From: Setophaga petechia
Lineage: Eukaryota > Chordata > Aves > Passeriformes > Parulidae
Reading direction: 5' to 3'
Length of the DNA stretch: 64,000 nt
Assembly: GCA_024362935.1 (NCBI GenBank)
Contig: JANCRA010000006.1
Span: 37,875,924-37,939,923, forward strand
Shown: positions 377 to 64,000 of the stretch, piece after piece
Layout: every line of letters begins with the position of its first letter
How positions within the stretch are numbered: the first letter of the stretch is position 1
Program-made: the position numbers and the translations under genes
The notes under the pieces: generated by a model
Told to the model about the DNA's origin: nothing
Databases searched by the model: none
The model's input: only the letters and a program-made list of their open reading frames with translations

Positions 377-662
377 GTGAAGGGAAAGGCAAGAGAGTGG
401 GAAAGTACTGTTTTCTAGCACTTTGCAAGCTGCTAACACAATCGCAGTGCTGTGTAGCAATTAGCTTGTCAGTGCACGGCAGTAAGTGTTTCTTGATACC
501 TACATCTGAGCAAATAGCTTTTTCACTTTGTCTCGCAAGGGGAAAACGTTGCTGCTCACTAAACAACTTCTATCGTGTTCTAGAAGTTGCACAGAGGGCT
601 GCATTGTGTTTTGCAAACAGTAAAAGAAAGTTGTCTAATACGCCTTCCTTTCAAGTATTAAT
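377..662. repeat. Representative complete satellite monomer (286 bp)
   Basis: A typical unit, given as a reference for the array. Landmarks in order: GTGAAGGGAAAGGCAAGAGA, then GTACTGTTTTCTAGCACTTT, the variable segment around GCTGTGTAGCAATTAGC, CAGTGCACGGCAGTAAGTG (CTGCAG in most other units), TACATCTGAGCAAATAGC, CGCAAGGGGAAAACG, AGAAGTTGCACAGAGGGCTG, a variable A-rich stretch, and GCCTTCCTTTCAAGTATTAA. The sequence is moderately AT-rich with few CpGs. Because 286 is not a multiple of three, no frame can run through several units. I see no CENP-B-box-like motif. Confidence 0.93.
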
Positions 663-1048
663 GTGAAGGGAAAGGCAAGAGAGTGGGAAAGTACTGTTTT
701 CTAGCACTTTGCAAGCTGCTAACACAGTCCTAGTGTTGTGTAGCAGTTGGCTGTTCAGTGCACTGCAGTAAGTGTTTCTTGTCACCTACATCTAAGCAAA
801 AAGCTTTTTCACTATGTCTCGCAAGGAGAAAACCTTCCTGCTCACTAAACAACTTCCATCGTGTTGTACATGTTGCAGAGAGGGCTGCAGAGTTTTTTGA
901 CACAAGAAAAAGAAAGTTGTCTAAGACGCCTTCCTTTCAAGTATTAATGTGAAGGGAAAGGCACGAGAGTGGGATAGTACTGTTTTCTAGCACTTTGCAG
1001 GCTGCTAACACAATCGCAGTGCTGTGTAGCAGTTAGCTTTTCAGTGCA

Positions 1049-1054
1049 CTGGAG
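1049..1054. repeat. Target-site duplication, left copy (CTGGAG)
   Basis: CTGGAG lies directly before the 5' LTR and is repeated directly after the 3' LTR at 10249-10254. A 6-bp duplication is usual for class II (alpha/beta-type) retroviral integrases. Most other satellite units have CTGCAG here, so the target monomer carried a C-to-G variant shared by both copies. Confidence 0.95.
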
Positions 1055-8060: not shown

Positions 8061-8076
8061 TTGCTCCAGCCCAGCC

Positions 8077-16153: not shown

Positions 16154-17739
16154 GTGTAGGGAAAGGCAAGAGAGTGGGAAAGTACTGTTTTCTATCACTT
16201 TGAAAGCTGCTTACCCAATCCCAGTTTTGTGCCGCTTCGTAGTTCGCCGTTCAGAAGCTGCCGCAGTCTCTGTTTCCCGGAGAAGGAGAAGACGCTTCTT
16301 GGCGGGAAGAATCTGGTGTCGTTACGCCGATCGCGGCGTGCTCCGGAGAACAGCTACGGCCGAGAGACACCCGGAAGCGGCGCTTAAAGGCACAGTGCTC
16401 CGTCTCCTGGTCTTTAGCGTCTCCTGCCGGCTACACCTTAGCAAAAACTTTTTCATTATGTCTCGCCAGGAGAAACTGTGTCTGTTCACAAAAAACCTCC
16501 CATCGTGCTCTAGAGCTTGCAGGCAGGTCTGCAGAGTGTTTTGCAACAAGAAAAAGTAACTTGTCCAAAAAAGCCATCAATTCGAATGTTCCTGGAAAGG
16601 GAAAATGCAGGAGAGCGGATAGGTGCTGTTTTCTACCAGTTTGCAAGCTGGACACACAATCCCAGTGTTCTACTACGATTGACTTTGCAGTGCACTGTAA
16701 TAATTGCCTATTGTTACTACATCTAAGCCAATAGCGTTTGCATTATATCTCTTCAGGAGAAACTGTACCAGTTCAGAAAACAACTCTCATTTTTTCTAGA
16801 AGTTGCACGGAGGTGTGCAGAGTGTTTTGCAAGAAGCAAAAGAAAGTTGTCCAAAACTGCTGCTATTCGAATAGTAATGCGAATGGAAAAGGCAGGAGAG
16901 TGGAAAGGTGCTGTTTTCTATCTGTTTGTAAGCTGCTTACACAATCCCAGAGTTGTGCAGCAATTAGTTTTTCAGTGCACTGTAGTAGGTGCCTCTTTTC
17001 ACCTGCATCTAAGCAAATTGCTTTTTCCCCATGTCTCGCAAGGAGAAACTGAGCCAGTTCAGAAAACATCTCCCATCGAGTTCTAGAGATTGCAGGCAGG
17101 TGTGCAGAGTGTTTTGCAAGAAGCAAAAGAAAGTTGTCTAAAACGCCTTGCATTCAAATAGAAATGTGAATAGAAAAGGCAGGAGAAGGGAGAGGTACTG
17201 TTTTCTATCAGTTTGCAACCTGCTTACACAATCTGCGTGTTGTGCAGCAATTAGCTTGCAGTGCACTGTAGTAGGTGCCTCTTTTCACCTATATCTAAGC
17301 AAATTGCTTTTTCCCCATGTCTTGCAAAGAGAAACTGAGCCAGTTCAGAAAATATCTCCCATCGACTTCTAGAGATTGCAGGCAGGTGTGCAGAGTGTTT
17401 TGCAAGAAGCCAAAGAAAGTTGTCTAAAATTCTTTCCATTCGAATAGTAATGTGCATGGAAAAGGCAGGAAGAGTGGAAAGGTACTCTTTTCTATCACTT
17501 TGCAAGCTGGGCACACAATCCCAGTGTTGTGCATCTATTAGCTTTGCAGTGCACTGCAGTAACTGCCTGTGGTAACCTACATCTAAGCAAAAAGCTTTTT
17601 CACTATCTCTCACTAGGAGAAAATGTTCCTGCTCATTAAACAACTTCCATCGTGATGTACAGGTTGCACAGAGGGCTGCAGAATGTTTTGCAGCAAGAAA
17701 AAGAAAGTTGTCTAAGACGCCTTCCTTTCAAGTATTAAT
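16154..17739. repeat. 1,586-bp diverged block, copy 1 (with CpG cassette)
   Basis: Five satellite monomers clearly diverged from the surrounding 286-bp family: they have TTCGAATAGTAATG-like joins and GCAGGTGTGCAGAGTG in place of GCACAGAGGGCTGCAG. The first is lengthened by about 153 bp. This copy is the most divergent of the seven: it has GGCGGGAAG where the others have GGCGCGAAG, and its last unit ends AATGCGAAGG where other copies end AAAGTGAAGG. Confidence 0.93.
16231..16437. promoter_or_regulatory. CpG-rich cassette, copy 1 (possible promoter fragment)
   Basis: About 205 bp with roughly two dozen CpGs, against only a few per ordinary 286-bp unit. It contains CCGGAAGC, a strong ETS/GABP-type motif, at 16371-16378, a short CGCCG-ATCG-CGGCG hairpin and CTTAAAGG. 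These resemble a CpG-island promoter, but promoter activity is inference. Its edges align weakly to the monomer (TTCAG...GCAGT on the left, CTACACCTTAGC on the right), so it sits within a monomer and does not replace one. Confidence 0.5.
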
Positions 17740-20700
17740 GCGAAGGGAAAGGCAAGAGAGTGGGAAAGTACTATTTTCTCTCACTTTGAGAGCTGCTAAC
17801 ACAATCCAAGTGCTGTGTACCAATTGACTTGCCACTGCACTGCAGTAAGTGTTTCTTGTCACCTACATCTAAGCAAATAGCTTTTTCACTATGTCTCGCA
17901 AGGAGAAAACCTTCCTGCTCACTAAACAACTTCCATCGTGTTGTAGATGTTGCACAGAGGGCTTCAGAGTGTTCTCTAACAAGAAAAAGAAAGTTGTCTA
18001 AGACGCCTTCCTTTCAAGTATTAATGTGAATGGAAAGGCGAGAGAGTGGGAAAGTACTGTTTTCTAGCACTTTGCAGGCTGCTAACACAATTGCAGTGCT
18101 GTGTAGCAGTTAGCTTTTCAGTGCACTGCAGTAAGTGTTTCTTGTCACCTACATCTAAGCAAATAGCTTTATCACTCTGTCTAGCAAGGAGAAAACCTTC
18201 TTGCTCACTAAACATTTCCTATCATGTTCTAGAAGTTGCACAGAGGGCTGCAGTGTGTTTTGCAGCAAGAAAAAGAAAGTTGTCTAAGACGCCTTCCTTT
18301 CAAGTATTAATGTGAAGGGAAAGGCAAGAGAGTGGGAAAGTACTGTTTTCTAGCACTTTGAGAGCTGCTAACACAATCCCAGTGCTGTGTACCAATTAAA
18401 TTGTCACTGCACTGCAGTAAGGGTTTCTTGTCACCTGCATCTAAGCAAATAGCTTTTTCACTATGTCTCGCAAGGAGAAAACCTTCCGGCTCACTAAACA
18501 TTTCCTATCGTGTTCTAGAAGTTGCACAGAGGGCTGCAGGGTGTTCTGTAACAAGAAAAAGAAAGTTGTCTAAGATGCCTTCCTTTCAAGTATTAATGTG
18601 AAGGGAAAGGCAAGAGAGTGGGAAAGTACTGTTTTCTATCACTTTGACAGCTGCTAAAACAATCCCAGTGCTGTGTACCAATTAACTTGTCACTGCACTG
18701 CAGTAAGTGTTTCTTGTCACCTACATCTAAGCAAATAGCTTTTTCACTCTGTCTCGCAAGGAGAAAACCTTCCTGCTCACTAAACATCTCCTATCGTGTT
18801 CTAGAAGTTGCAGAGAGGGCTGCAGTGTGTTCTGTAACAAGAAAAAGAAAGTTGTCTAAGACGCCTACCTTTCAAGTATTAATGTGAAGGGAAAGGCAAG
18901 AGAGTGGGAAAGTACTGTTTTCTAGCACTTTGCAAGCTGCTAACACAATCGCAGTGCTGTGTAGCAATTAGCTGTTCAGTGCACGGCAGTAAGTGTTTCT
19001 TGATACCTACATCTGAGCAAATAGCTTTTTCACTATGTCTCGCATGGGGAAAACGTTGCTGCTCACTAAACAACTTCCATCGTGTTGTAGAAGTTGCACA
19101 GAGGGCTGCAGTGTGTTTTGCAAAATATAAAACAAAGTTGTCTAAGACGCCTTCCTTTCAAGTATTAATGTGAAGGGAAAGGCAAGAGAGTGGGAAAGTA
19201 CTGTTTTCTAGCACTTTGCAAGCTGCTAACACAATCGCAGTGCTGTGTAGCAGTTAGCTTTTCAGTGCACTGCAGTAAGAGTTTCTTGTCACCTACATCT
19301 AAGCAAATAGCTTTATCACTCTGTCTAGCAAGGAGAAAACCTTCTTGCTCACTAAACATTTCCTATCGTGTTCTAGAAGTTGCACAGAGGGCTGCAGTGT
19401 GTTTTGCAGCAAGAAAAAGAAAGTTGTCTAAGACGCCTTCCTTTCAAGTATTAATGTGAAGGGAAAGGCAAGAGAGTGGGAAAGTATTGTTTACTAGCAC
19501 TTTGAGAGCTGCTAACACAATCCCAGTGCTGTGTACCAATTAACTTGTCACTGCGCTGCAGTAAGGGTTTCTTGTCACCTGCATCTAAGCAAATAGCTTT
19601 TTCACTATGTTTCGCAAGGAGAAAACCTTCCGGCTCACTAAACATTTCCTATCGTGTTCTAGAAGTTGCACAGAGGGCTGCAGGGTGTTCTGTAACAAGA
19701 AAAAGAAAGTTGTCTAAGACGCCTTCCTTTCAAGTATTAATGTGAAGGGAAAGGCAAGAGAGTGGGAAAGTACTGTTTTCTAGCACTTTGCAGGCTGCTA
19801 ACACAATCGCAGTGCTGTGTAACAGTTAGCTGTTCAGCGCACTGCAGTAAGTGTTTCTTGTCACCTACATCTAAGCAAATAGCTTTTTCACTATATCTCG
19901 CAAGGAGAAAACCTTCTTGCTCACTAAACATCTCCTATCGTGTTCTAGGAGTTGCACAGAGGGCTGCAGTGTGTTCTGTAACAAGAAAAAGAAAGTTGTC
20001 TAAGACGCCTTCTTTCAAGTATTAATGTGAAGGGAAAGGCAAGAGAGTGGGAAAGTACTGTTTTCTAGCACTTTGCAAGCTCCTAACACAATCCCAGTTC
20101 TGTGTAGCAATTAGCTGTTCAGTCCACTGCAGTAAGTGTTTCTTGTCACCTACACCTAAGCAAATAGCTTTTTCACTATGTCTCGCAAGGAGAAAACCTT
20201 CCTGCTCACTAAACAACTTCCATCGTATTGTAGATGTTGCAGAGAGGGCTGCAGAGTTTTTTGACACAAGAAAAAGAAAGTTGTCTAAGATGCCTTCCTT
20301 TCAAGTATTAATGTGAAGGGAAAGGCAAGAGAGTGGGAAAGTACTGTTTTCTAGCACTTTGCAAGCTGCTAACACAATCGCAGTGCTGTGTAGCAATTAG
20401 CTTGTCAGTGCACGGCAGTAAGTGTTTCTTGATACCTACATCTGAGCAAATAGCTTTTTCACTTTGTCTCGCAAGGGGAAAACGTTGCTGCTCACTAAAC
20501 AACTTCCATCGTGTTGTAGAAGTTGCACAGAGGGCTGCAGTGTGTTTTGCAGCAAGAAAAAGAAAGTTGTCTAAGACGCCTTCCTTTCAAGTATTAATGT
20601 GAAGGGAAAGGCAAGAGAGTGGGAAGGTACTGTTTTCTAGCACTTTGCAAGCTGCTAACACAATCCCAGTGCTGTGTAGCAATTAGCTGTTCAGTGCACT

Positions 20701-23700
20701 GCAGTAAGTGTTTCTTGTCACCTATATCTCAGCAAAAAGCTTTATCACGATGTCTCGCAAGGAGAAAACCTTCCTGCTCACTAAACATTTCCTATCGTGT
20801 TGTAGAAGTTGCACAGAGGGCTGCAGTGTGTTTTGCAGCAAGAAAAAGAAAGTTGTCTAAGACGCCTTCCTTTCAAGTATTAATGTGAAGGGAAAGACAA
20901 GAGAGTGGGAAAGTACTGTTTTCTAGCACTTTGCAAGCTGCTAACACAGTACTAGTGCTGTGTAGCAGTTAGCTGTTCAGTGCACTGCAGTAAGTGTTTC
21001 TTGTCACCTACATCTAAGCAAAAAGCTTTTTCACTATGTCTCGCAAGGAGAAAACCTTCCTGCTCACTAAACAACTTCCATCGTGTTGTAGATGTTGCAG
21101 AGAGGGCTGCAGAGTTTTTTGACACAAGAAAAAGAAAGTTGTCTAAGATGCCTTCCTTTCAAGTATTAATGTGAAGGGAAAGGCAAGAGAGTGGGAAAGT
21201 ACTGTTTTCTATCACTTTGAGAGCTGCTAACACAATCCCAGTGCTGTGTACCAATTAACTTGTCACTGCACTGCAGTAAGTGTTTCTTGTCACCTACATC
21301 TAAGCAAATAGCTTTTTCACTCTGTCTCGCAAGGAGAAAACCTTCCTGCTCACTAAACATCTCCTATCGTGTTCTAGAATTTGCACAGAGGGCTGCAGTG
21401 TGTTCTGTAACAAGAAAAAGAAAGTTGTCTAAGACGCCTTCCTTTCAAGTATTAATGTGAAGGGAAAGGCAAGAGAGTGGGAAAGTACTGTTTTCTAGCA
21501 CTTTGCAAGCTGCTAACACAATCGCAGTGCTGTGTAGCAATTAGCTTGTCAGTGCACGGCAGTAAGTGTTTCTTGATACCTACATCTGAGCAAATAGCTT
21601 TTTCACTTTGTCTCGCAAGGGGAAAACGTTGCTGCTCACTAAACAACTTCCATCGTGTTGTAGAAGTTGCACAGAGGGCTGCAGTGTGTTTTGCAAAATA
21701 TAAAACAAAGTTGTCTAAGACGCCTTCCTTTCAAGTATTAATGTGAAGGGAAAGGCAAGAGAGTGGGAAAGTACTGTTTTCTAGCACTTTGCAGGCTGCT
21801 AACACAATCGCAGTGCTGTGTAGCAGTTAGCTTTTCAGTGCACTGCAGTAAGAGTTTCTTGTCACCTACATCTAAGCAAATAGCTTTATCACTCTGTCTA
21901 GCAAGGAGAAAACCTTCTTGCTCACTAAACATTTCCTATCGTGTTCTAGAAGTTGCACAGAGGGCTGCAGTGTGTTTTGCAGCAGGAAAAAAAAAATTGT
22001 CTAAGACGCCTTCCTTTCAAGTATTAATGTGAAGGGAAAGGCAAGAGAGTGGGAAAGTATTGTTTACTAGCACTTTGAGAGCTGCTAACACAATCCCAGT
22101 GCTGTGTACCAATTAACTTGTCACTGCGCTGCAGTAAGGGTTTCTTGTCACCTGCATCTAAGCAAATAGCTTTTTCACTATGTTTCGCAAGGAGAAAACC
22201 TTCCGGCTCACTAAACATTTCCTATCGTGTTCTAGAAGTTGCACAGAGGGCTTCAGGGTGTTCTGTAACAAGAAAAAGAAAGTTGTCTAAGACGCCTTCC
22301 TTTCAAGTATTAATGTGAAGGGAAAGGCAAGAGAGTGGGAAAGTACTGTTTTCTAGCACTTTGCAGGCTGCTAACACAATCGCAGTCCTGTGTAACAGTT
22401 AGCTGTTCAGTGCACTGCAGTAAGTGTTTCTTGTCACCTACATCTAAGCAAATAGCTTTTTCACTATGTCTCGCAAGGAGAAAACCTTCCTGCTCACTAA
22501 ACATCTCCTATCGTGTTCTAGGAGTTGCACAGAGGGCTGCAGTGTGTTCTGTAACAAGAAAAAGAAAGTTGTCTAAGACGCCTTCCTTTCAAGTATTAAT
22601 GTGAAGGGAAAGGCAAGAGAGTGGGAAAGTACTGTTTTCTAGCACTTTGCAAGCTGCTAACACAATCGCAGTGCTGTGTAGCAATTAGCTTGTCAGTGCA
22701 CGGCAGTAAGTGTTTCTTGATACCTACATCTGAGCAAATAGCTTTTTCCCTTTGTCTCGCAAGGGGAAAACGTTGCTGCTCACTAAACAACTTCCATCGT
22801 GTTGTAGAAGTTGCACAGAGGGCTGCAGTGTGTTTTGCAGCAAGAAAAAGAAAGTTGTCTAAGACGCCTTCCTTTCAAGTATTAATGTGAAGGGAAAGGC
22901 AAGAGAGTGGGAAAGTACTGTTTTCTAGCACTTTGCAAGCTGCTAACACAATCCCAGTGCTGTGTAGCAATTAGCTGTTCAGTGCACTGCAGTAAGTGTT
23001 TCTTGTCACCTATATCTCAGCAAAAAGCTTTATCACGATGTCTCGCAAGGAGAAAACCTTCCTGCTCACTAAACATTTCCTATCGTGTTCTAGAAGTTGC
23101 ACAGAGGGCTGCAGTGTGTTTTGCAGCAAGAAAAAGAAAGTTGTCTAAGACGCCTTCCTTTCAAGTATTAATGTGAAGGGAAAGGCAAGAGAGTGGGAAA
23201 GTACTGTTTTCTAGCACTTTGCAAGCTGCTAACACAATCGCAGTGCTGTGTAGCAATTAGCTTGTCAGTGCACGGCAGTAAGTGTTTCTTGATACCTACA
23301 TCTGAGCAAATAGCTTTTTCACTATGTCTCGCATGGGGAAAACGTTGCTGCTCACTAAACAACTTCCATCGTGTTGTAGAAGTTGCACAGAGGGCTGCAG
23401 TGTGTTTTGCAAAATGTAAAAGAAAGTTGTCTAAGACGCCTTCCTTTCAAGTATTAATGTGAAGGGAAAGGCAAGAGAGTGGGAAAGTACTGTTTTCTAT
23501 CACTTTGCAGGCTGCTAACACAATCGCAGTGCTGTGTAGCAGTAAGCTTTTCAGTGCACTGCAGTAAGTGTTTCTTGTCACCTACATCTGAGCAAATAGC
23601 TTTTTCACTCTGTCTCGCAAGGAGAAAACCTTCCTGCTCACTAAACATCTCCTATCGTGCTCTAGAAGTTGCACAGAGGACTGCAGTGTGTTTTGCAAAA

Positions 23701-23744
23701 AGTAAAAGAAAGTTGTCTAAGACGCCTTCCTTTCAAGTATTAAT
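17740..23744. repeat. 286-bp satellite array between blocks 1 and 2
   Basis: 21 units, one of them 285 bp (CTTCTTTCAAG near 20010). A module of several units starting at 18884 (a GGGGAAAACG unit, then a CTGTCTAGCAAGG unit, then a CCTTCCGGCTC unit) is repeated from 21457 and matches 12723 and 31493. The last unit before the next block (23459) is the variant with AGAGGACTGCAG and CAAAAAGTAAAAG that precedes every block. There is no gene here. Confidence 0.95.
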
Positions 23745-25330
23745 GTGAAGGGAAAGGCAAGAGAGTGGGAAAGTACTGTTTTCTATCACTTTGAAAGCTG
23801 CTTACCCAATCCCAGTTTTGTGCCGCTTCTTAGTTCGCCGTTCAGAAGCTGCCGCAGTCTCTGTTTCCCGGAGAAGGAGAAGACGCTTCTTGGCGCGAAG
23901 AATCTGGTGTCGTTACGCCGATCGCGGCGTGCTCCGGAGAACAGCTACGGCCGAGAGACACCCGGAAGCGGCGCTTAAAGGCACAGTGCTCCGTCTCCTG
24001 GTCTTTAGCGTCTCCTGCCGGCTACACCTTAGCAAAAAGCTTTTTCATTATGTCTCGCCAGGAGAAACTGTGTCTGTTCACAAAAAACCTCCCATCGTGC
24101 TCTAGAGGTTGCAGGCAGCTCTGCAGAGTGTTTTGCAACAAGAAAAAGTAACTTGTCCAAAAAAGCCATCAATTCGAATGTTCCTGGAAAGGGAAAATGC
24201 AGGAGAGTGGATAGGTACTGTTTTCTACCAGTTTGCAAGCTGGACACACAATCCCAGTGTTATACTACGATTGACTTTGCAGTGCACTGTAATAATTGCC
24301 TATTGTTACTACATCTAAGCCAATAGCGTTTGCATTATATCTCTTCAGGAGAAACTGTACCAGTTCAGAAAACAACTCTCATTTTTTCTAGAAGTTGCAC
24401 GGAGGTGTGCAGAGTGTTTTGCAAGAAGCAAAAGAAAGTTGTCCAAAACTGCTGCCATTCGAATAGTAATGCGAATGGAAAAGGCAGGAGAGTGGAAAGC
24501 TGCTGTTTTCTATCTGTTTGTAAGCTGCTTACACAATCCCAGAGTTGTGCAGCAATTAGTTTTTCAGTGCACTGTAGTAGGTGCCTCTTTTCACCTGCAT
24601 CTAAGCAAATTGCTTTTCCCCATGTCTCGCAAGGAGAAACTGAGCCAGTTCAGAAAACATCTCCCATCGAGTTCTAGAGATTGCAGGCAGGTGTGCAGAG
24701 TGTTTTGCAAGAAGCAAAAGAAAGTTGTCTAAAACGCCTTGCATTCAAATAGAAATGTGAATAGAAAAGGCAGGAGAAGGGAGAGGTACTGTTTTCTATC
24801 AGTTTGCAACCTGCTTACACAATCTGCGTGTTGTGCAGCAATTAGCTTGCAGTGCACTGTAGTAGGTGCCTCTTTTCACCTATATCTAAGCAAATTGCTT
24901 TTTCCCCATGTCTTGCAAAGAGAAACTGAGCCAGTTCAGAAAATATCTCCCATCGACTTCGAGAGATTACAGGCAGGTGTGCAGAGCGTTTTGCAAGAAG
25001 CCAAAGAAAGTTGTCTAAAATTCTTTCCATTCGAATAGTAATGTGCATGGAAAAGGCAGGAAGAGTGGAAAGGTACTGTTTTCATTCACTTTGCAAGCTG
25101 CTAACACAATCCCAGTGTTGTGCATCTATTAGCTTTGCAGTGCACTGCAGTAACTGCCTATGGTAACCTACATCTAAGCAAAAAGCTTTTTCACTATCTC
25201 TCACTAGGAGAAAATGTTCCTGCTCATTAAACAACTTCCATCGTGCTGTACAGATTGCACAGAGGGCTGCAGAATGTTTTGCAGCAAGAAAAAGAAAGTT
25301 GTCTAAGACGCCTTCCTTTCAAGTATTAAA
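23745..25330. repeat. 1,586-bp diverged block, copy 2
   Basis: Same length and internal order as the other copies. A private variant is CGCTTCTTAGTTC where others have CGCTTCGTAGTTC. It ends with ATTAAAGTGAAGG, the junction seen after all later blocks. Confidence 0.94.
23822..24028. promoter_or_regulatory. CpG-rich cassette, copy 2
   Basis: ETS-type CCGGAAGC at 23962-23969, which is 217 bp into the block as in every copy. CpG density and hairpin are as in copy 1. Confidence 0.5.
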
Positions 25331-28300
25331 GTGAAGGGAAAGGCAAGAGAGTGGGAAAGTACTGTTTTCTAGCACTTTGCAGGCTGCTAACACAATCCCA
25401 GTGCTGTGTACCAATTAACTTGTCACTGCACTGCAGTAAGGGTTTCTTGTCTGGTATATCTAAGCGAAAAGCTTTTTCACTATGTCTCGCAAGGAGAAAA
25501 CCTTCTTGCTCACTAAACATTTCCTATCGTGTTCCAGAAGTTGCACAGAGGGCTGCAGTGTGTTTTGACCCAAGAAAAAGAAAGTTGTCTAAGACGCCTT
25601 CCATTCAAGTATTAATGTGAAGGGAAAGGCAAGAGAGTGGGAAAGTACTGTTTTCTAGCACTTTGCAAGCTGCTAACACAATCGCAGTGCTGTGTAGCAA
25701 TTAGCTTGTCAGTGCACGGCAGTAAGTGTTTCTCGATACCTACATCTGAGCAAATAGCTTTTTCACTTTGTCTCGCAAGGGGAAAACGTTGCTGCTCACT
25801 AAACAACTTCCATCGTGTTGTAGAAGTTGCACAGAGGGCTGCAGTGTGTTTTGCAAAATGTAAAAGAAAGTTGTCTAAGACGCCTTCCTTTCAAGTATTA
25901 ATGTGAAGGGAAAGGCAAGAGAGTGGGAAAGTACTGTTTTCTAGCACTTTGCAAGTTGCTAACACAGTCCTAGTTCTGTGTAGCAGTTAGCTGTTCAGTG
26001 CACTGCAGTAAGTGTTTCTTGTCACCTACATCTAAGCAAAAAGCTTTTTCACTATGTCTCGCAAGGAGAAAACCTTCCTGCTCACTAAACAACTTCCATC
26101 ATGTTGTAGATGTTGCAGAGAGGGCTGCAGAGTTTTTTGACACAAGAAAAAGAAAGTTGTCTAAGATGCCTTCCTTTCAAGTATTAATGTGAAGGGAAAG
26201 GCAAGAGAGTGGGAAAGTACTGTTTTCTAGCACTTTGCAGGCTGCTAACACAATCGCAGTGCTGTGTAGCAGTTAGCTTTTCAGTGCACTGCAGTAAGTG
26301 TTTCTTGTCACCTACATCTAAGCAAATAGCTTTTTCATTATGTCTCGCAAGGAGAAAACCTTCTTGCTCACTAAACATCTCCTATCGTGTTCTAGAAGTT
26401 GCACAGAGGGCTGCAGTGTCTTCTGTAACAAGAAAAAGAAAGTTGTCTAAGACGCCTTCCTTTCAAGTATTAATGTGAAGGGAAAGGCAAGAGAGTGGGA
26501 AAGTACTGTTTTCTAGCACTTTGCAAGCTGCTAACACAATCCCAGTTCTGTGTAGCAATTAGCTGTTCAGTGCACTGCAGTAAGTGTTTCTTGTCACCTA
26601 CATCTAAGCAAATAGCTTTTTCACTATGTCTCGCAAGGAGAAAACCTTCCTGCTCACTAAACAACTTCCATCGTGTTGTAGATGTTGCAGAGAGGGCTGC
26701 AGAGTTTTTTGACACAAGAAAAAGAAAGTTGTCTAAGATGCCTTCCTTTCAAGTATTAATGTGAAGGGAAAGGCAAGAGAGTGGGAAAGTACTGTTTTCT
26801 AGCACTTTGCAGGCTGCTAACACAATCCCAGTGCTGTGTACCAATTAACTTGTCACTGCACTGCAGTAAGGGTTTCTTGTCACCTATATCTAAGCAAAAA
26901 GCTTTTTCACTATGTCTCGCAAGGAGAAAACCTTCTTGCTCACTAAACATTTCCTATCGTGTTCCAGAAGTTGCACAGAGGGCTGCAGTGTGTTTTGACA
27001 CAAGAAAAAGAAAGTTGTCTAAGACGCCTTCCTTTCAAGTATTAATGTGAAGGGAAAGGCAAGAGAGTGGGAAAGTACTGTTTTCTAGCACTTTGCAAGC
27101 TGCTAACACAATCGCAGTGCTGTGTAGCAATTAGCTTGTCAGTGCACGGCAGTAAGTGTTTCTTGATACCTACATCTGAGCAAATAGCTTTTTCACTTTG
27201 TCTCGCAAGGGGAAAATGTTGCTGCTCACTAAACAACTTCCATCGTGTTCTAGAAGTTGCACAGAGGGCTGCAGTGTGTTTTGCAAAATGTAAAAGAAAG
27301 TTGTCTAAGACGCCTTCCTTTCAAGTATTAATGTGAAGGGAAAAGCAAGAGAGTGGGAAAGTACTGTTTTCTAGCACTTTGCAGGCTGCTAACACAATCG
27401 CAGTGCTGTGTAGCAGTAAGCTTTTCAGTGCACTGCAGTAAGTGTTTCTTGTCACCTACATCTGAGCAAATAGCTTTTTCACTCTGTCTCGCAAGGAGAA
27501 AACCTTCCTGCTCACTAAACATCTCCTATCGTGCTCTAGAAGTTGCACAGAGGACTGCAGTGTGTTTTGCAAAAAGTAAAAGAAAGTTGTCTAAGACGCC
27601 TTCCTTTCAAGTATTAATGTGAAGGGAAAGGCAAGAGAGTGGGAAAGTACTGTTTTCTAGCACTTTGCAAGCTGCTAACACAGTCCTAGTGCTGTGTAGC
27701 AGTTAGCTGTTCAGTGCACTGCAGTAAGTGTTTCTTTTCACCTACATCTAAGCAAAAAGCTTTTTCACTATGTCTCGCAAGGAGAAAACCTTCCTGCTCA
27801 CTAAACAACTTCCATCGTATTGTAGATGTTGCAGAGAGGGCTGCAGAGATTTTTGACACAAGAAAAAGAAAGTTGTCTAAGATGCCTTCCTTTCAAGTAT
27901 TAATGTGAAGGGAAAGGCAAGAGAGTGGGAAAGTACTGTTTTCTAGCACTTTGCAGGCTGCTGACACAATCGCAGTGCTGTGTAGCAGTTAGCTTTTCAG
28001 TGCACTGCAGTAAGTGTTTCTTCTCACCTACATCTAAGCAAATAGCTTTTTCACTATGTCTCGCAAGGAGAAAACCTTCTTGCTCACTAAACATCTCCTA
28101 TCGTGTTCTAGAAGTTGCGCAGAGGGCTGCAGTGTGTTCTGTAACAAGAAAAAGAAAGTTGTCTAAGACGCCTTCCTTTCAAGTATTAATGTGAAGGGAA
28201 AGGCAAGAGAGTGGGAAAGTACTGTTTTCTAGCACTTTGCAAGCTGCTAACACAGTCCTAGTGCTGTGTAGCAGTTAGCTGTTCAGTGCACTGCAGTAAG

Positions 28301-38954: not shown

Positions 38955-41900
38955 GTGAAGGGAAAGGCAAGAGAGTGGGAAAGTACTGTTTTCTAGCACT
39001 TTGCAGGCTGCTAACACAATCCCAGTGCTGTGTACCAATTAACTTGTCACTGCACTGCAGTAAGGGTTTCTTGTCACCTATATCTAAGCAAAAAGCTTTT
39101 TCACTATGTCTCGCAAGGAGAAAACCTTCTTGCTCACTAAACATTTCCTATCGTGTTCCAGAAGTTGCACAGAGGGCTGCAGTGTGTTTTGACCCAAGAA
39201 AAAGAAAGTTGTCTAAGACGCCTTCCATTCAAGTATTAATGTGAAGGGAAAGGCAAGAGAGTGGGAAAGTACTGTTTTCTAGCACTTTGCAAGCTGCTAA
39301 CACAATCGCAGTGCTGTGTAGCAATTAGCTTGTCAGTGCACGGCAGTAAGTGTTTCTCGATACCTACATCTGAGCAAATAGCTTTTTCACTTTGTCTCGC
39401 AAGGGGAAAACGTTGCTGCTCACTAAACAACTTCCATCGTGTTCTAGAAGTTGCACAGAGGGCTGCAGTGTGTTTTGACACAAGAAAAAGAAAGTTGTCT
39501 GAGACGCCTTCCTTTCAAGTATTAATGTGAAGGGAAAGGCAAGAGAGTGGGAAAGTACTGTTTTCTAGCACTTTGCAAGCTGCTAACACAATCCCAGTGC
39601 TGTGTAGCAATTAGCTTTTCAGTGCACTGCAGTAAGTGTTTCTTGTCACCTACATCTAAGCAAATAGCTTTATCACTATGTCTCGCAAGGAGAAAACCTT
39701 CCTGCTCACTAAACAACTTCCATCGTATTCTAGAAGTTGCAGAGAGGGCTGCAGTGTGTTCTGTAACAAGAAAAAGAAAGTTGTCTAAGACGCCTTCCTT
39801 TCAAGTATTAATGTGAAGGGAAAGGCAAGAGAGTGGGAAAGTACTGTTTTCAAGCACTTTGCAAGCTGCTAACACAATCCCAGTGCTGTGTAGCAGTTAG
39901 CTGTTCAGTGCACGGCAGTACGTGTTTCTTGTCACCTACATCTAAGCAAATAGCTTTTTCACTATGTCTCGCAAGGAGAAAACCTTCCTGCTCACTAAAC
40001 AACTTCCATCGTGTTGTAGATGTTGCAGAGAGGGCTGCAGAGTTTTTTGACCCAAGAAAAAGAAAGTTGTCTAAGATGCCTTCCTTTCAAGTATTAATGT
40101 GAAGGGAAAGGCAAGAGAGTGGGAAAGTACTGTTTTCTAGCACTTTGCAGGCTGCTGACACAATCCCAGTGCTGTGTACCAATTAACTTGTCACTGCACT
40201 GCAGTAAGGGTTTCTTGTCACCTATATCTAAGCAAAAAGCTTTTTCACTATGTCTCGCAAGGAGAAAACCTTCTTGCTCACTAAACATTTCCTATCGTGT
40301 TCCAGAAGTTGCACAGAGGGCTGCAGTGTGTTTTGACACAAGAAAAAGAAAGTTGTCTAAGACGCCTTCCTTTCAAGTATTAATGTGAAGGGAAAGGCAA
40401 GAGAGTGGGAAAGTACTGTTTTCTAGCACTTTGCAAGCTGCTAACACAATCGCAGTGCTGTGTAGCAATTAGCTTGTCAGTGCACGGCAGTAAGTGTTTC
40501 TTGATACCTACATCTGAGCAAATAGCTTTTTCACTTTGTCTCGCAAGGGGAAAAAGTTGCTGCTCACTAAACAACTTCCATCGTGTTCTAGAAGTTGCAC
40601 AGAGGGCTGCAGTGTGTTTTGCAAAATGTAAAAGAAAGTTGTCTAAGACGCCTTCCTTTCAAGTATTAATGTGAAGGGAAAAGCAAGAGAGTGGGAAAGT
40701 ACTGTTTTCTAGCACTTTGCAGGCTGCTAACACAATCGCAGTGCTGTGTAGCAGTAAGCTTTTCAGTGCACTGCAGTAAGTGTTTCTTGTCACCTACATC
40801 TGAGCAAATAGCTTTTTCACTCTGTCTCGCAAGGAGAAAACCTTCCTGCTCACTAAACATCTCCTATCGTGCTCTAGAAGTTGCACAGAGGACTGCAGTG
40901 TGTTTTGCAAAAAGTAAAAGAAAGTTGTCTAAGACGCCTTCCTTTCAAGTATTAATGTGAAGGGAAAGGCAAGAGAGTGGGAAAGTACTGTTTTCTAGCA
41001 CTTTGCAAGCTGCTAACACAGTCCTAGTGCTGTGTAGCAGTTAGCTGTTCAGTGCACTGCAGTAAGTGTTTCTTGTCACCTACATCTAAGCAAAAAGCTT
41101 TTTCACTATGTCTCGCAAGGAGAAAACCTTCCTGCTCACTAAACAACTTCCATCGTGTTGTAGATGTTGCAGAGAGGGCTGCAGAGTTTTTTGACACAAG
41201 AAAAAGAAAGTTGTCTAAGATGCCTTCCTTTCAAGTATTAATGTGAAGGGAAAGGCAAGAGAGTGGGAAAGTACTGTTTTCTAGCACTTTGCAGGCTGCT
41301 GACACAATCGCAGTGCTGTGTAGCAGTTAGCTTTTCAGTGCACTGCAGTAAGTGTTTCTTGTCACCTACATCTAAGCAAATAGCTTTTTCACTATGTCTC
41401 GCAAGGAGAAAACCTTCTTGCTCACTAAACATCTCCTATCGTGTTCTAGAAGTTGCACAGAGGGCTGCAGTGTCTTCTGTAACAAGAAAAAGAAAGTTGT
41501 CTAAGATGCCTTCCTTTCAAGTATTAATGTGAAGGGAAAGGCAAGAGAGTGGGAAAGTACTGTTTTCTAGCACTTTGCAAGCTGCTAACACAGTCCTAGT
41601 GCTGTGTAGCAGTTAGCTGTTCAGTGCACTGCAGTAAGTGTTTCTTTTCACCTACATCTAAGCAAAAAGCTTTTTCACTATGTCTCGCAAGGAGAAAACC
41701 TTCCTGCTCACTAAACAACTTCCATCGTGTTGTAGATGTTGCAGAGAGGGCTGCAGAGTTTTTTGACACAAGAAAAAGAAAGTTGTCTAAGATGCCTTCC
41801 TTTCAAGTATTAATGTGAAGGGAAAGGCAAGAGAGTGGGAAAGTACTGTTTTCTAGCACTTTGCAGGCTGCTAACACAATCGCAGTGCTGTGTAGCAGTA

Positions 41901-42100
41901 AGCTTTTCAGTGCACTGCAGTAAGTGTTTCTTGTCACCTACATCTGAGCAAATAGCTTTTTCACTCTGTCTCGCAAGGAGAAAACCTTCCTGCTCACTAA
42001 ACATCTCCTATCGTGCTCTAGAAGTTGCACAGAGGACTGCAGTGTGTTTTGCAAAAAGTAAAAGAAAGTTGTCTAAGACGCCTTCCTTTCAAGTATTAAT

Positions 42101-43686
42101 GTGAAGGGAAAGGCAAGAGAGTGGGAAAGTACTGTTTTCTATCACTTTGAAAGCTGCTTACCCAATCCCAGTTTTGTGCCGCTTCGTAGTTCGCCGTTCA
42201 GAAGCTGCCGCAGTCTCTTTTTCCCGGAGAAGGAGAAGACGCTTCTTGGCGCGAAGAATCTGGTGTCGTTACGCCGATCGCGGCGTGCTCCGGAGAACAG
42301 CTACGGCCGACAGACACCCGGAAGCGGCGCTTAAAGGCACAGTGCTCCGTCTCCTGGTCTTTAGCGTCTCCTGCCGGCTACACCTTAGCAAAAAGCTTTT
42401 TCATTATGTCTCGCCAGGAGAAACTGTGTCTGTTCACAAAAAACCTCCCATCGTGCTCTAGAGGTTGCAGGCAGCTCTGCAGAGTGTTTTGCAACAAGAA
42501 AAAGTAACTTGTCCAAAAAAGCCATCAATTCGAATGTTCCTGGAAAGGGAAAATGCAGGAGAGCGGATAGGTACTGTTTTCTACCAGTTTGCAAGCTGGA
42601 CACACAATCCCAGTGTTATACTACGATTGACTTTGCAGTGCACTGTAATAATTGCCTATTGTTACTACATCTAAGCCAATAGCGTTTGCATTATATCTCT
42701 TCAGGAGAAACTGTACCAGTTCAGAAAACAACTCTCATTTTTTCTAGAAGTTGCACGGAGGTGTGCAGAGTGTTTTGCAAGAAGCAAAAGAAAGTTGTCC
42801 AAAACTGCTGCCATTCGAATAGTAATGCGAATGGAAAAGGCAGGAGAGTGGAAAGCTGCTGCTTTCTATCTGTTTGTAAGCTGCTTACACAATCCCAGAG
42901 TTGTGCAGCAATTAGTTTTTCAGTGCACTGTAGTAGGTGCCTCTTTTCACCTGCATCTAAGCAAATTGCTTTTCCCCATGTCTCGCAAGGAGAAACTGAG
43001 CCAGTTCAGAAAACATCTCCCATCGAGTTCTAGAGATTGCAGGCAGGTGTGCAGAGTGTTTTGCAAGAAGCAAAAGAAAGTTGTCTAAAACGCCTTGCAT
43101 TCAAATAGAAATGTGAATAGAAAAGGCAGGAGAAGGGAGAGGTACTGTTTTCTATCAGTTTGCAACCTGCTTACACAATCTGCGTGTTGTGCAGCAATTA
43201 GCTTGCAGTGCACTGTAGTAGGTGCCTCTTTTCACCTATATCTAAGCAAATTGCTTTTTCCCCATGTCTTGCAAAGAGAAACTGAGCCAGTTCAGAAAAT
43301 ATCTCCCATCGACTTCGAGAGATTACAGGCAGGTGTGCAGAGCGTTTTGCAAGAAGCCAAAGAAAGTTGTCTAAAATTCTTTCCATTCGAATAGTAATGT
43401 GCATGGAAAAGGCAGGAAGAGTGGAAAGGTACTGTTTTCATTCACTTTGCAAGCTGCTAACACAATCCCAGTGTTGTGCATCTATTAGCTTTGCAGTGCA
43501 CTGCAGTAACTGCCTGTGGTAACCTACATCTAAGCAAAAAGCTTTTTCACTATCTCTCACTAGGAGAAAATGTTCCTGCTCATTAAACAACTTCCATCGT
43601 GCTGTACAGATTGCACAGAGGGCTGCAGAATGTTTTGCAGCAAGAAAAAGAAAGTTGTCTAAGACGCCTTCCTTTCAAGTATTAAA
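42101..43686. repeat. 1,586-bp diverged block, copy 6
   Basis: Same subtype as copies 5 and 7, at a spacing of exactly 4,732 bp from both. Confidence 0.95.
42178..42384. promoter_or_regulatory. CpG-rich cassette, copy 6
   Basis: ETS-type CCGGAAGC at 42318-42325. Confidence 0.5.
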
Positions 43687-46600
43687 GTGAAGGGAAAGGC
43701 AAGAGAGTGGGAAAGTACTGTTTTCTAGCACTTTGCAGGCTGCTAACACAATCCCAGTGCTGTGTACCAATTAACTTGTCACTGCACTGCAGTAAGGGTT
43801 TCTTGTCACCTATATCTAAGCAAAAAGCTTTTTCACTATGTCTCGCAAGGAGAAAACCTTCTTGCTCACTAAACATTTCCTATCGTGTTCCAGAAGTTGC
43901 ACAGAGGGCTGCAGTGTGTTTTGACCCAAGAAAAAGAAAGTTGTCTAAGACGCCTTCCATTCAAGTATTAATGTGAAGGGAAAGGCAAGAGAGTGGGAAA
44001 GTACTGTTTTCTAGCACTTTGCAAGCTGCTAACACAATCGCAGTGCTGTGTAGCAATTAGCTTGTCAGTGCACGGCAGTAAGTGTTTCTCGATACCTACA
44101 TCTGAGCAAATAGCTTTTTCACTTTGTCTCGCAAGGGGAAAACGTTGCTGCTCACTAAACAACTTCCATCGTGTTCTAGAAGTTGCACAGAGGGCTGCAG
44201 TGTGTTTTGACACAAGAAAAAGAAAGTTGTCTGAGACGCCTTCCTTTCAAGTATTAATGTGAAGGGAAAGGCAAGAGAGTGGGAAAGTACTGTTTTCTAG
44301 CACTTTGCAAGCTGCTAACACAATCCCAGTGCTGTGTAGCAATTAGCTTTTCAGTGCACTGCAGTAAGTGTTTCTTGTCACCTACATCTAAGCAAATAGC
44401 TTTATCACTATGTCTCGCAAGGAGAAAACCTTCCTGCTCACTAAACAACTTCCATCGTATTCTAGAAGTTGCAGAGAGGGCTGCAGTGTGTTCTGTAACA
44501 AGAAAAAGAAAGTTGTCTAAGACGCCTTCCTTTCAAGTATTAATGTGAAGGGAAAGGCAAGAGAGTGGGAAAGTACTGTTTTCAAGCACTTTGCAAGCTG
44601 CTAACACAATCCCAGTGCTGTGTAGCAGTTAGCTGTTCAGTGCACGGCAGTACGTGTTTCTTGTCACCTACATCTAAGCAAATAGCTTTTTCACTATGTC
44701 TCGCAAGGAGAAAACCTTCCTGCTCACTAAACAACTTCCATCGTGTTGTAGATGTTGCAGAGAGGGCTGCAGAGTTTTTTGACCCAAGAAAAAGAAAGTT
44801 GTCTAAGATGCCTTCCTTTCAAGTATTAATGTGAAGGGAAAGGCAAGAGAGTGGGAAAGTACTGTTTTCTAGCACTTTGCAGGCTGCTGACACAATCCCA
44901 GTGCTGTGTACCAATTAACTTGTCACTGCACTGCAGTAAGGGTTTCTTGTCACCTATATCTAAGCAAAAAGCTTTTTCACTATGTCTCGCAAGGAGAAAA
45001 CCTTCTTGCTCACTAAACATTTCCTATCGTGTTCCAGAAGTTGCACAGAGGGCTGCAGTGTGTTTTGACACAAGAAAAAGAAAGTTGTCTAAGACGCCTT
45101 CCTTTCAAGTATTAATGTGAAGGGAAAGGCAAGAGAGTGGGAAAGTACTGTTTTCTAGCACTTTGCAAGCTGCTAACACAATCGCAGTGCTGTGTAGCAA
45201 TTAGCTTGTCAGTGCACGGCAGTAAGTGTTTCTTGATACCTACATCTGAGCAAATAGCTTTTTCACTTTGTCTCGCAAGGGGAAAAAGTTGCTGCTCACT
45301 AAACAACTTCCATCGTGTTCTAGAAGTTGCACAGAGGGCTGCAGTGTGTTTTGCAAAATGTAAAAGAAAGTTGTCTAAGACGCCTTCCTTTCAAGTATTA
45401 ATGTGAAGGGAAAAGCAAGAGAGTGGGAAAGTACTGTTTTCTAGCACTTTGCAGGCTGCTAACACAATCACAGTGCTGTGTAGCAGTAAGCTTTTCAGTG
45501 CACTGCAGTAAGTGTTTCTTGTCACCTACATCTGAGCAAATAGCTTTTTCACTCTGTCTCGCAAGGAGAAAACCTTCCTGCTCACTAAACATCTCCTATC
45601 GTGCTCTAGAAGTTGCACAGAGGACTGCAGTGTGTTTTGCAAAAAGTAAAAGAAAGTTGTCTAAGACGCCTTCCTTTCAAGTATTAATGTGAAGGGAAAG
45701 GCAAGAGAGTGGGAAAGTACTGTTTTCTAGCACTTTGCAAGCTGCTAACACAGTCCTAGTGCTGTGTAGCAGTTAGCTGTTCAGTGCACTGCAGTAAGTG
45801 TTTCTTGTCACCTACATCTAAGCAAAAAGCTTTTTCACTATGTCTCGCAAGGAGAAAACCTTCCTGCTCACTAAACAACTTCCATCGTGTTGTAGATGTT
45901 GCAGAGAGGGCTGCAGAGTTTTTTGACACAAGAAAAAGAAAGTTGTCTAAGATGCCTTCCTTTCAAGTATTAATGTGAAGGGAAAGGCAAGAGAGTGGGA
46001 AAGTACTGTTTTCTAGCACTTTGCAGGCTGCTGACACAATCGCAGTGCTGTGTAGCAGTTAGCTTTTCAGTGCACTGCAGTAAGTGTTTCTTGTCACCTA
46101 CATCTAAGCAAATAGCTTTTTCACTATGTCTCGCAAGGAGAAAACCTTCTTGCTCACTAAACATCTCCTATCGTGTTCTAGAAGTTGCACAGAGGGCTGC
46201 AGTGTCTTCTGTAACAAGAAAAAGAAAGTTGTCTAAGATGCCTTCCTTTCAAGTATTAATGTGAAGGGAAAGGCAAGAGAGTGGGAAAGTACTGTTTTCT
46301 AGCACTTTGCAAGCTGCTAACACAGTCCTAGTGCTGTGTAGCAGTTAGCTGTTCAGTGCACTGCAGTAAGTGTTTCTTTTCACCTACATCTAAGCAAAAA
46401 GCTTTTTCACTATGTCTCGCAAGGAGAAAACCTTCCTGCTCACTAAACAACTTCCATCGTGTTGTAGATGTTGCAGAGAGGGCTGCAGAGTTTTTTGACA
46501 CAAGAAAAAGAAAGTTGTCTAAGATGCCTTCCTTTCAAGTATTAATGTGAAGGGAAAGGCAAGAGAGTGGGAAAGTACTGTTTTCTAGCACTTTGCAGGC

Positions 46601-46832
46601 TGCTAACACAATCGCAGTGCTGTGTAGCAGTAAGCTTTTCAGTGCACTGCAGTAAGTGTTTCTTGTCACCTACATCTGAGCAAATAGCTTTTTCACTCTG
46701 TCTCGCAAGGAGAAAACCTTCCTGCTCACTAAACATCTCCTATCGTGCTCTAGAAGTTGCACAGAGGACTGCAGTGTGTTTTGCAAAAAGTAAAAGAAAG
46801 TTGTCTAAGACGCCTTCCTTTCAAGTATTAAT

Positions 46833-48418
46833 GTGAAGGGAAAGGCAAGAGAGTGGGAAAGTACTGTTTTCTATCACTTTGAAAGCTGCTTACCCAATCC
46901 CAGTTTTGTGCCGCTTCGTAGTTCGCCGTTCAGAAGCTGCCGCAGTCTCTTTTTCCCGGAGAAGGAGAAGACGCTTCTTGGCGCGAAGAATCTGGTGTCG
47001 TTACGCCGATCGCGGCGTGCTCCGGAGAACAGCTACGGCCGACAGACACCCGGAAGCGGCGCTTAAAGGCACAGTGCTCCGTCTCCTGGTCTTTAGCGTC
47101 TCCTGCCGGCTACACCTTAGCAAAAAGCTTTTTCATTATGTCTCGCCAGGAGAAACTGTGTCTGTTCACAAAAAACCTCCCATCGTGCTCTAGAGGTTGC
47201 AGGCAGCTCTGCAGAGTGTTTTGCAACAAGAAAAAGTAACTTGTCCAAAAAAGCCATCAATTCGAATGTTCCTGGAAAGGGAAAATGCAGGAGAGCGGAT
47301 AGGTACTGTTTTCTACCAGTTTGCAAGCTGGACACACAATCCCAGTGTTATACTACGATTGACTTTGCAGTGCACTGTAATAATTGCCTATTGTTACTAC
47401 ATCTAAGCCAATAGCGTTTGCATTATATCTCTTCAGGAGAAACTGTACCAGTTCAGAAAACAACTCTCATTTTTTCTAGAAGTTGCACGGAGGTGTGCAG
47501 AGTGTTTTGCAAGAAGCAAAAGAAAGTTGTCCAAAACTGCTGCCATTCGAATAGTAATGCGAATGGAAAAGGCAGGAGAGTGGAAAGCTGCTGCTTTCTA
47601 TCTGTTTGTAAGCTGCTTACACAATCCCAGAGTTGTGCAGCAATTAGTTTTTCAGTGCACTGTAGTAGGTGCCTCTTTTCACCTGCATCTAAGCAAATTG
47701 CTTTTCCCCATGTCTCGCAAGGAGAAACTGAGCCAGTTCAGAAAACATCTCCCATCGAGTTCTAGAGATTGCAGGCAGGTGTGCAGAGTGTTTTGCAAGA
47801 AGCAAAAGAAAGTTGTCTAAAACGCCTTGCATTCAAATAGAAATGTGAATAGAAAAGGCAGGAGAAGGGAGAGGTACTGTTTTCTATCAGTTTGCAACCT
47901 GCTTACACAATCTGCGTGTTGTGCAGCAATTAGCTTGCAGTGCACTGTAGTAGGTGCCTCTTTTCACCTATATCTAAGCAAATTGCTTTTTCCCCATGTC
48001 TTGCAAAGAGAAACTGAGCCAGTTCAGAAAATATCTCCCATCGACTTCGAGAGATTACAGGCAGGTGTGCAGAGCGTTTTGCAAGAAGCCAAAGAAAGTT
48101 GTCTAAAATTCTTTCCATTCGAATAGTAATGTGCATGGAAAAGGCAGGAAGAGTGGAAAGGTACTGTTTTCATTCACTTTGCAAGCTGCTAACACAATCC
48201 CAGTGTTGTGCATCTATTAGCTTTGCAGTGCACTGCAGTAACTGCCTGTGGTAACCTACATCTAAGCAAAAAGCTTTTTCACTATCTCTCACTAGGAGAA
48301 AATGTTCCTGCTCATTAAACAACTTCCATCGTGCTGTACAGATTGCACAGAGGGCTGCAGAATGTTTTGCAGCAAGAAAAAGAAAGTTGTCTAAGACGCC
48401 TTCCTTTCAAGTATTAAA
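46833..48418. repeat. 1,586-bp diverged block, copy 7
   Basis: The last block in the window. No further CpG cassette appears to the right, where a different class of diverged units is found. Confidence 0.95.
46910..47116. promoter_or_regulatory. CpG-rich cassette, copy 7
   Basis: ETS-type CCGGAAGC at 47050-47057. Confidence 0.5.
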
Positions 48419-63876: not shown

Positions 63877-64000
63877 GTGAAGGGAAAGGCAAGAGAGTGG
63901 GAAAGTACTGTTTTCTAGCACTTTGCAGGCTGCTAACACAATCCCAGTGCTGTGTACCAATTAACTTGTCACTGCACTGCAGTAAGGGTTTCTTGTCACC
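63877..64000. repeat. Start of a third 7,729-bp repeat copy (cut by window end)
   Basis: The last 124 bp match the first 124 bp of both previous copies (GCAGGCTGCTAACACAATCC, then ACCAATTAACTTGTCACTGC and GTAAGGGTTTCTTGTCACC). The higher-order array therefore probably continues beyond the window. Confidence 0.85.

What the first reader, a model, noticed from the sequence alone, without database searches (positions are those of the whole stretch)
16231..47116. A CpG-dense cassette with a fixed ETS motif repeated seven times in a CpG-poor satellite
Seven 1,586-bp blocks each carry about 205 bp with around 24 CpGs, starting at 16231, 23822, 29698, 33858, 37446, 42178 and 46910. Surrounding monomers have only a few CpGs. 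Every copy keeps CCGGAAGC at offset 217 (established as a high-affinity ETS/GABP-type motif of CpG-island promoters), a CGCCG-ATCG-CGGCG hairpin and CTTAAAGG. Such CpG density usually decays if methylated, so the cassettes are either new or kept unmethylated. They may be a captured promoter that transcribes the satellite, or an insulator-like element spaced through it.
Basis: partly seen in the sequence, partly recalled or inferred. Interest (0 to 1): 0.8.

Follow-up and report, generated by a model that had tools for sequence, protein, structure and literature searches.

The report
CpG-rich insert in a chromosome-end satellite
A short CpG-dense DNA segment sits inside a long repeated DNA array near the end of a bird-like chromosome; it recurs thousands of times across the genome because the array copies itself, and the promoter-like motif in it looks like a late addition rather than a proven switch.

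Summary
Seven 205-bp cassettes (23-24 CpGs, CpG o/e 1.21-1.28) lie at the stated places in a 286-bp satellite (consensus o/e 0.24). Each lengthens one monomer by about 156 bp and is followed by four diverged monomers. The core has at least 3,539 copies genome-wide. Of 98 intervals between listed C6 copies, 87 are n x 286 + 156 bp within 8 bp: in-register exchange.

Relatives change the interpretation. Of 37 family cassettes compared, only 2 (the array type and its nearest relic) have the ETS core. "Fixed" therefore means homogenised and late. In old copies CpG transitions run 3.5x other C/G transitions, against 2.6x in monomers: no consistent sign of protection from methylation. Simple CTCF, NRF1, SP1, CCAAT and TATA strings, a CENP-B box and Rfam matches were not found.

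Cassettes point to the nearer contig end on 23 of 25 contigs, as if chromosome ends exchange them. Best reading: an old CpG-rich insert carried by a composite satellite. Promoter, or recombination-initiating island, remains open; no RNA, methylation or ChIP data were available.

The parts
16231..16435 (+). CpG-dense cassette, copy 1 (ETS core at 16371)
23822..24026 (+). CpG-dense cassette, copy 2 (ETS core at 23962)
29698..29902 (+). CpG-dense cassette, copy 3 (ETS core at 29838)
33858..34062 (+). CpG-dense cassette, copy 4 (ETS core at 33998)
37446..37650 (+). CpG-dense cassette, copy 5 (ETS core at 37586)
42178..42382 (+). CpG-dense cassette, copy 6 (ETS core at 42318)
46910..47114 (+). CpG-dense cassette, copy 7 (ETS core at 47050)
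24022..25167 (+). four diverged monomers (78-83% to the monomer consensus) downstream of the cassette; the same set follows copies 3-7
10260..64000 (+). 286-bp satellite array carrying the cassettes (139 monomers of exactly 286 bp taken from the whole window, mean 93% to their consensus)
1..1049 (+). same satellite on the other side of the inserted provirus

Best explanation
The cassette is an old CpG-dense insertion (net about 156 bp) in one monomer of a 286-bp satellite. With four diverged monomers it forms a 1,586-bp block of a composite, higher-order satellite near chromosome ends. The array spreads it by in-register unequal crossing-over and gene conversion within a chromosome, and between the ends of different chromosomes in a mostly fixed outward orientation. 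Its CpG density reflects a CpG-rich source copied recently, and its ETS motif arose late, in the lineage that was amplified. Shown: the register, the near identity between contigs, the polarity, the restriction of the ETS motif to one lineage, and the CpG decay. Inferred: the exchange mechanism, that contig ends are short arms or centromere regions, and that the cassette is mainly a passenger.
For: A cassette-bearing monomer spans 440 bp between anchors against 286 (alignment). 87 of 98 intervals between the exact-core C6 cassettes that one search listed fit n x 286 + 156 within 8 bp. Identity is 98-100% within and between C6, C48, C95 and C120 (38 loci). An isolated 5.6-kb relic on C6 carries three cassette lineages. 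Older lineages occur on many contigs. ETS core in 2 of 37 family rows. CpG transition excess 3.5x in old cassettes against 2.6x in monomers. The cassette strand points to the nearer contig end on 23 of 25 contigs, P = 1.9e-5 (positions and lengths; test). Nine contigs have a B-type cassette 22-57 kb from an end.
Against: CpG o/e near 1 persists in lineages only 57-75% alike, and the array type has more CpGs (24) than any relative (11-22), which passive decay does not explain. In two comparisons old cassettes looked protected: relics A and B and the 0.70-0.80 identity bin (CpG kept 0.45, GpC kept 0.38). One 20-mer (CAGCTACNGCCGANAGACAC) is better conserved than the rest (permutation P = 0.011), which hints at some function. 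The polarity test was thought of after seeing the data and scored by hand against the nearest contig end; only C95 was shown to end in TTAGGG, and the end of C6 was not.
Confidence: 0.66

Rival explanations
1. The cassette is a working CpG-island-type promoter (ETS, perhaps E2F) that transcribes the downstream monomers of the satellite.
For: CpG o/e 1.21-1.28. In one cassette CCCGGAAG occurs once (P = 0.015) and TTSSCGC-type E2F strings twice against 0.30 expected (P = 0.04); SGCGSGAA once (P = 0.11) (uncorrected). Monomers and cassettes of the window lie in one orientation. AATAAA is absent from both strands of 53.7 kb and GTAAGT occurs 104 times on the + strand only, so a + strand transcript could be long; these counts rest on a few monomer types.
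Against: ETS in 2 of 37 and GCGCGAA or GCGGGAA (same strand) in 2 of 25 family rows. CpGs decay about as in monomers. ATTAAA, a weaker poly(A) signal, occurs 14 times on the + strand.
Confidence: 0.17
2. The cassette is a recombination-initiating CpG island. In birds, which lack PRDM9, hotspots lie at CpG islands and promoters (recalled, no paper read here). Breaks in it would drive its own spread and homogenisation, with GC-biased repair raising its CpG count.
For: In-register spacing, near identity across contigs, and the highest CpG count of the family in the amplified lineage.
Against: CpGs show methylation-like decay. Crossing-over is usually suppressed near centromeres (recalled).
Confidence: 0.1
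3. The cassette is an insulator or boundary element like the CTCF-bound part of DXZ4.
For: A CpG-rich element recurring through a long array.
Against: No CTCF-like consensus in the cassette tested (simple string only). Spacing is not regular: median interval 6.2 kb, with n from 8 to 47 monomers among the 87 in-register intervals.
Confidence: 0.03
4. The cassette is a structured RNA gene or the remnant of one; old lineages carry inverted repeats.
For: Inverted repeats seen by eye in the C64 and C1 copies.
Against: No Rfam match near its threshold in a 7-kb stretch with two cassettes or in 8 relic loci. Consensus folding energy is poor, -12.9 kcal/mol for 16 rows (-25.7 for the 14 non-array rows) against -52 to -83 for the 8 single sequences folded, and the repeats are lost in the array type.
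Confidence: 0.02

Closest known systems
Chicken acrocentric centromere ends (CNM 41-bp higher-order repeats with the shared CenTe_5k short-arm sequence; PMC9974502, passages read)
   Same: Satellite higher-order arrays near the ends of many chromosomes, a conserved sequence shared by short arms, multicopy genes in the pericentromeric region.
   Different: Here the monomer is 286 bp, the C6 array is about 2.2 Mb, and it carries a CpG-dense cassette. Centromere identity was not tested.
Human acrocentric pseudo-homologous regions with SST1 (PMC10172130, passages read)
   Same: Near-identical GC-rich tandem elements on different chromosomes near their ends, attributed to exchange between non-homologues.
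   Different: Human SST1 is inverted on chr14 relative to chr13 and chr21; here 23 of 25 contigs share one polarity. No population data here.
DXZ4 macrosatellite (PMC3218863, passages read)
   Same: Tandem array with many CpGs per unit and a promoter assigned within the unit.
   Different: DXZ4 is one X-linked locus with 3-kb GC-rich units and CTCF binding; here only a 205-bp part is CpG-rich, no CTCF-like string was found, and copies lie on many contigs.
Human composite repeats and alpha-satellite higher-order repeats (recalled)
   Same: Larger unit built from diverged monomers plus an insert, homogenised as a block.
   Different: Sequence relationship not tested; no CENP-B box above shuffles here.

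Membership tests
Higher-order / composite satellite | Tandem monomers of fixed length, head to tail | tested here: met
   286-bp period through the window outside the provirus and cassettes
Higher-order / composite satellite | Larger units more alike than the monomers inside them | tested here: met
   Six blocks 99.6-100% in the window, 38 loci 98-100% over 560 bp, against 78-83% of their four diverged monomers to the array consensus
CpG-island promoter | CpG o/e above 0.6 over about 200 bp | tested here: met
   o/e 1.21-1.28 over 205 bp, borderline length
CpG-island promoter | Transcription-factor site kept while neighbouring bases diverge | tested here: not met
   ETS in 2 of 37 family rows
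CpG-island promoter | Low germline methylation (no CpG transition excess) | tested here: not met
   3.5x in old cassettes, 2.6x in monomers; 4/48 against 2/157 sites in array copies. Indirect, and (one bin) and 96 lean the other way
CpG-island promoter | Transcript starts | not testable with these tools
   no RNA data
DXZ4-like macrosatellite insulator | CTCF site in each unit | tested here: not met
   simple consensus, one cassette
Centromeric satellite | Megabase array at one place per chromosome | tested here: inconclusive
   C6 array starts between 35.801 and 35.858 Mb and ends between 38.016 and 38.025 Mb of 38.14; all twelve 10-kb probes from 36.0 to 38.0 Mb hold monomers; other contigs only spot-probed
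Centromeric satellite | CENP-A binding | not testable with these tools
   no ChIP data
Centromeric satellite (CENP-B type) | CENP-B box | tested here: not met
   best match 2 mismatches in cassette and block, 3 in the monomer, as in shuffles
Acrocentric pseudo-homologous region | Near-identical sequence on different chromosomes near ends, one orientation | tested here: met
   contigs stand in for chromosomes, and 2 of 25 contigs go the other way
Acrocentric pseudo-homologous region | Recombination between non-homologues seen in populations | not testable with these tools
   one genome
Known RNA family | Rfam match | tested here: not met
   only sub-threshold matches, most outside the cassettes

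The most novel reading that the evidence does not exclude
The cassette is a self-propagating meiotic recombination island: a CpG-dense, promoter-like segment that attracts double-strand breaks in a PRDM9-less bird, so that the block carrying it is copied within arrays and between the ends of different chromosomes, gaining CpGs by GC-biased repair and incidentally gaining an ETS site that opens the chromatin. Satellite amplification would then be driven by an embedded hotspot.
Probability: 0.12. Interest if true: 0.8.

Novelty: new variant of a known kind. Interest (0 to 1): 0.45.

Why it matters
If the cassette acts, thousands of CpG-island-like elements seed transcription or recombination inside chromosome-end satellite DNA, and the question of what amplifies and homogenises satellites across non-homologous chromosomes becomes testable at a defined 205-bp element. 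If it is a passenger, it shows that a promoter-like CpG cluster with a 'fixed' motif in a satellite can arise from homogenisation alone, a caution for reading conservation in tandem arrays.

Tried and rejected
Even number of monomers between cassettes: true for the six window intervals, but 44 even and 43 odd on C6; rejected. CpG protection: one old pair (relics A and B) looked protected, 8 of 17 CpG kept against 8 of 23 GpC (gaps left out), unlike monomers; with 18 distinct cassettes the 0.70-0.80 identity bin still did, but every bin above 0.80 kept fewer CpG than GpC, and the tree-based count of 32 rows did not support it. Small coding gene starting ATGTCTCGC: the A of the ATG is only 71% conserved among 139 monomers, and the frame differs between array type and relic C mainly by amino-acid changes (read by eye). 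CENP-B box: no better than shuffles. Structured RNA. A source gene outside the satellite was not found: genome DNA searches score only the best 40 of 1,013, 2,033 and 2,823 candidates, so a diverged source could be hidden. Literature: searches for a 286-bp bird satellite, bird centromere satellites or a CpG-rich ETS satellite gave listings without an evident match; most subscription papers are not held, so this is no proof of absence in print. A thrush and a nightingale paper were searched for passages only. Counting ETS-breaking against neutral variants genome-wide, counting HSF5-like genes, and a keratin-family test of the bird label were asked and never answered (of these one search was answered on repeat).

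Full report
WHAT IS THERE. The window is G000:C6:37875924-37939923 of a 1.222-Gb genome in 687 contigs; C6 is 38,138,923 bp. Apart from one provirus and the cassettes it is a 286-bp satellite. The monomer consensus has 3 CpGs (o/e 0.24), and the satellite outside the cassettes 2.83 CpG per 205 bp. The ETS core is at offset 141 from the stated starts.

ANATOMY. A cassette-bearing monomer spans 440 bp between anchors instead of 286; with the small length changes of the next monomers the net gain over whole intervals is 156 bp. The left junction is abrupt; the right side fades into monomer-like sequence. It is followed by four diverged monomers (78-83% to consensus), then ordinary ones at about 91-98%. 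Six of the seven 1,586-bp blocks compared are 99.6-100% identical (the first block was not in that comparison). Window intervals are 26, 20, 14, 12, 16 and 16 x 286 + 156 bp, within 1 bp (from the starts). Of 98 intervals between the exact-core cassettes that one search listed on C6, 87 fit n x 286 + 156 within 8 bp; n is even 44 times and odd 43 times, and 11 intervals do not fit. Copies with a changed core were not in that list.

NUMBERS. The 32-bp core with up to 3 mismatches occurs 1,539 times forward and 2,000 times reverse; reversed-pattern controls are 0 and 0. The figure 2,000 looks like a cap, so at least 3,539. On C6 the array starts between 35.801 and 35.858 Mb and ends between 38.016 and 38.025 Mb; all twelve 10-kb probes from 36.0 to 38.0 Mb hold monomers, but 7 of the 12 hold no cassette by a simple core match plus one (L020) likewise none, so cassettes are unevenly spread (cassettes found in L009, L017, L018 and L019 only). 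I aligned 38 cassette loci (34 on C6, 2 on C48, 1 each on C95 and C120); two more fetched pieces lacked the upstream part and dropped out. They are 98.0-100% identical over 560 bp. All 38 keep the ETS core, but most were chosen by similarity to a query or pattern that contains it. Thirteen were not: the seven in the window and six in probe loci L009, L017, L018 and L019.

OLD RELATIVES. One exact core lies outside the array at C6:35.168 Mb on the other strand. Its 9-kb surroundings (L043) hold a 5.6-kb relic array with three cassettes: C (92% to the array type), B and A. Searching with B and A found more lineages on many contigs, including a separate B-type array on C14 and older copies on C1, C17, C34, C45 and C64 (40 of 2,033 and 40 of 2,823 candidates scored). 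A 20-mer typical of B occurs exactly 57 times on 24 contigs, controls 0 and 0. I aligned 37 family rows (the array type as one majority row). Each has 11-24 CpGs, but only relic C and the array type have an ETS core, 2 of 37. An E2F-like GCGCGAA or GCGGGAA on the same strand is in 2 of 25. The ETS site is therefore confined to one lineage, most simply a late gain, and its fixation follows from homogenisation. The best conserved stretch among 15 representatives is CAGCTACNGCCGANAGACAC (permutation P = 0.011 with a window size picked by me); its function is unknown. The last 12 of the 37 were found by that 20-mer, so they say nothing on its conservation.

METHYLATION. Parsimony on a tree of 32 distinct old cassettes gives 87 CpG transitions (exposure 69.7) against 60 other C/G transitions (170.0), a 3.5-fold excess. 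In 28 monomers it is 18 (16.5) against 81 (189.8), 2.6-fold; the difference is not significant (z = 1.05). In the 38 array cassettes, transitions hit 4 of 48 CpG-site positions and 2 of 157 others (P = 0.028); transversions hit 5 and 9. Cassette CpGs thus decay like methylated DNA. Results that lean the other way: relics A and B kept 8 of 17 CpGs against 8 of 23 GpCs while monomers of similar divergence kept fewer CpGs than GpCs; the 0.70-0.80 identity bin (15 pairs) kept 0.45 of CpGs against 0.38 of GpCs, though all four bins above 0.80 kept fewer CpGs (0.39-0.83 against 0.63-0.93), as did the bin below 0.70; and on the branches to relic A, relic C and the array type the CpG transition rate is lower (by subtraction, 12 per 28 exposure against 53 per 35), possibly only because long branches saturate, since on the array-type and relic C branches the ratio to other C/G transitions is still about 3.3 (by subtraction, small counts). 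What remains unexplained is why the family rows still have CpG o/e near 1 (0.84-1.26 in the 17 rows printed) while monomers of the same arrays are CpG-poor, and why the array type has the most CpGs. Either the cassette came from a CpG-rich source not long before the family radiated, or the lineage that is copied is renewed by biased conversion or low methylation.

PLACE AND POLARITY. On nine contigs (C6, C16, C17, C21, C34, C48, C95, C120, C214) a B-type cassette lies 22-57 kb from a contig end. On 23 of 25 contigs with cassettes and known length the cassette strand points to the nearer end; C3 and C14 do not, C6 also carries the inverted relic, and C14 has one copy the other way. I scored this by hand after noticing it, by majority per contig; P = 1.9e-5. 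Some copies are far from an end (C3 6.1 Mb, C46 1.9 Mb). C95 ends in TTAGGG repeats, the end of C6 does not; for the others I do not know that the contig end is the chromosome end. This fits exchange between non-homologous chromosome ends, as described for human acrocentrics (PMC10172130, passages), and the short-arm sequence shared by chicken acrocentrics (PMC9974502, passages).

MOTIFS AND OTHER TESTS. In 2,000 shuffles of one cassette CCGGAAG has P = 0.06, CCCGGAAG 0.015, TTSSCGC 0.04 and SGCGSGAA 0.11; NRF1, CRE, CCAAT, SP1, YY1, ZNF143, TATA and CTCF strings (recalled consensus forms) are absent. No CENP-B box above shuffles. No Rfam family near threshold in window 23500-30500 or in 8 relic loci; consensus folding of 16 members is poor. 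AATAAA is absent in 53.7 kb on both strands, ATTAAA occurs 14 times and GTAAGT 104 times, both on the + strand only.

VERDICT. A composite satellite with an old CpG-dense insert, spread by in-register exchange. A promoter role is possible (0.17) but rests on a motif confined to the amplified lineage. The boldest reading, a recombination-initiating island that drives its own spread, is not excluded.

Noticed in passing
window 1055-10246: Near-complete provirus inserted in the satellite: two 734-bp LTRs identical at 730 positions, apparent 6-bp target duplication (by eye), gag (Gag_p24) and env (Avian_gp85) domains. Described only.
   Followed up: partly
L021:6317-7417 (C6 about 38.056 Mb), L022: HSF5-like gene (PF00447 E = 1.4e-14; PDB 8zys HSF5 E = 5.5e-32) between the array and the contig end; reading frames shared by L021 and L022 outside the gene suggest a tandemly repeated unit.
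   Followed up: partly
window 50544-53410 and 58273-61139: A second block of diverged monomers without a cassette, repeated 7,729 bp apart.
   Followed up: no
G000:C14:21.91-22.08 Mb: A separate array of the older, ETS-less B-type cassette, often at a spacing of 7,435 bp, pointing away from the nearer contig end.
   Followed up: partly
L095-L097, L093: Older cassettes carry inverted repeats (about 10-bp and 12-bp arms) that the array type has lost (seen by eye).
   Followed up: partly
L022:7056-9101 (minus strand): Retroviral gag-like open frame with zinc-knuckle-like motifs near the contig end (by eye).
   Followed up: no
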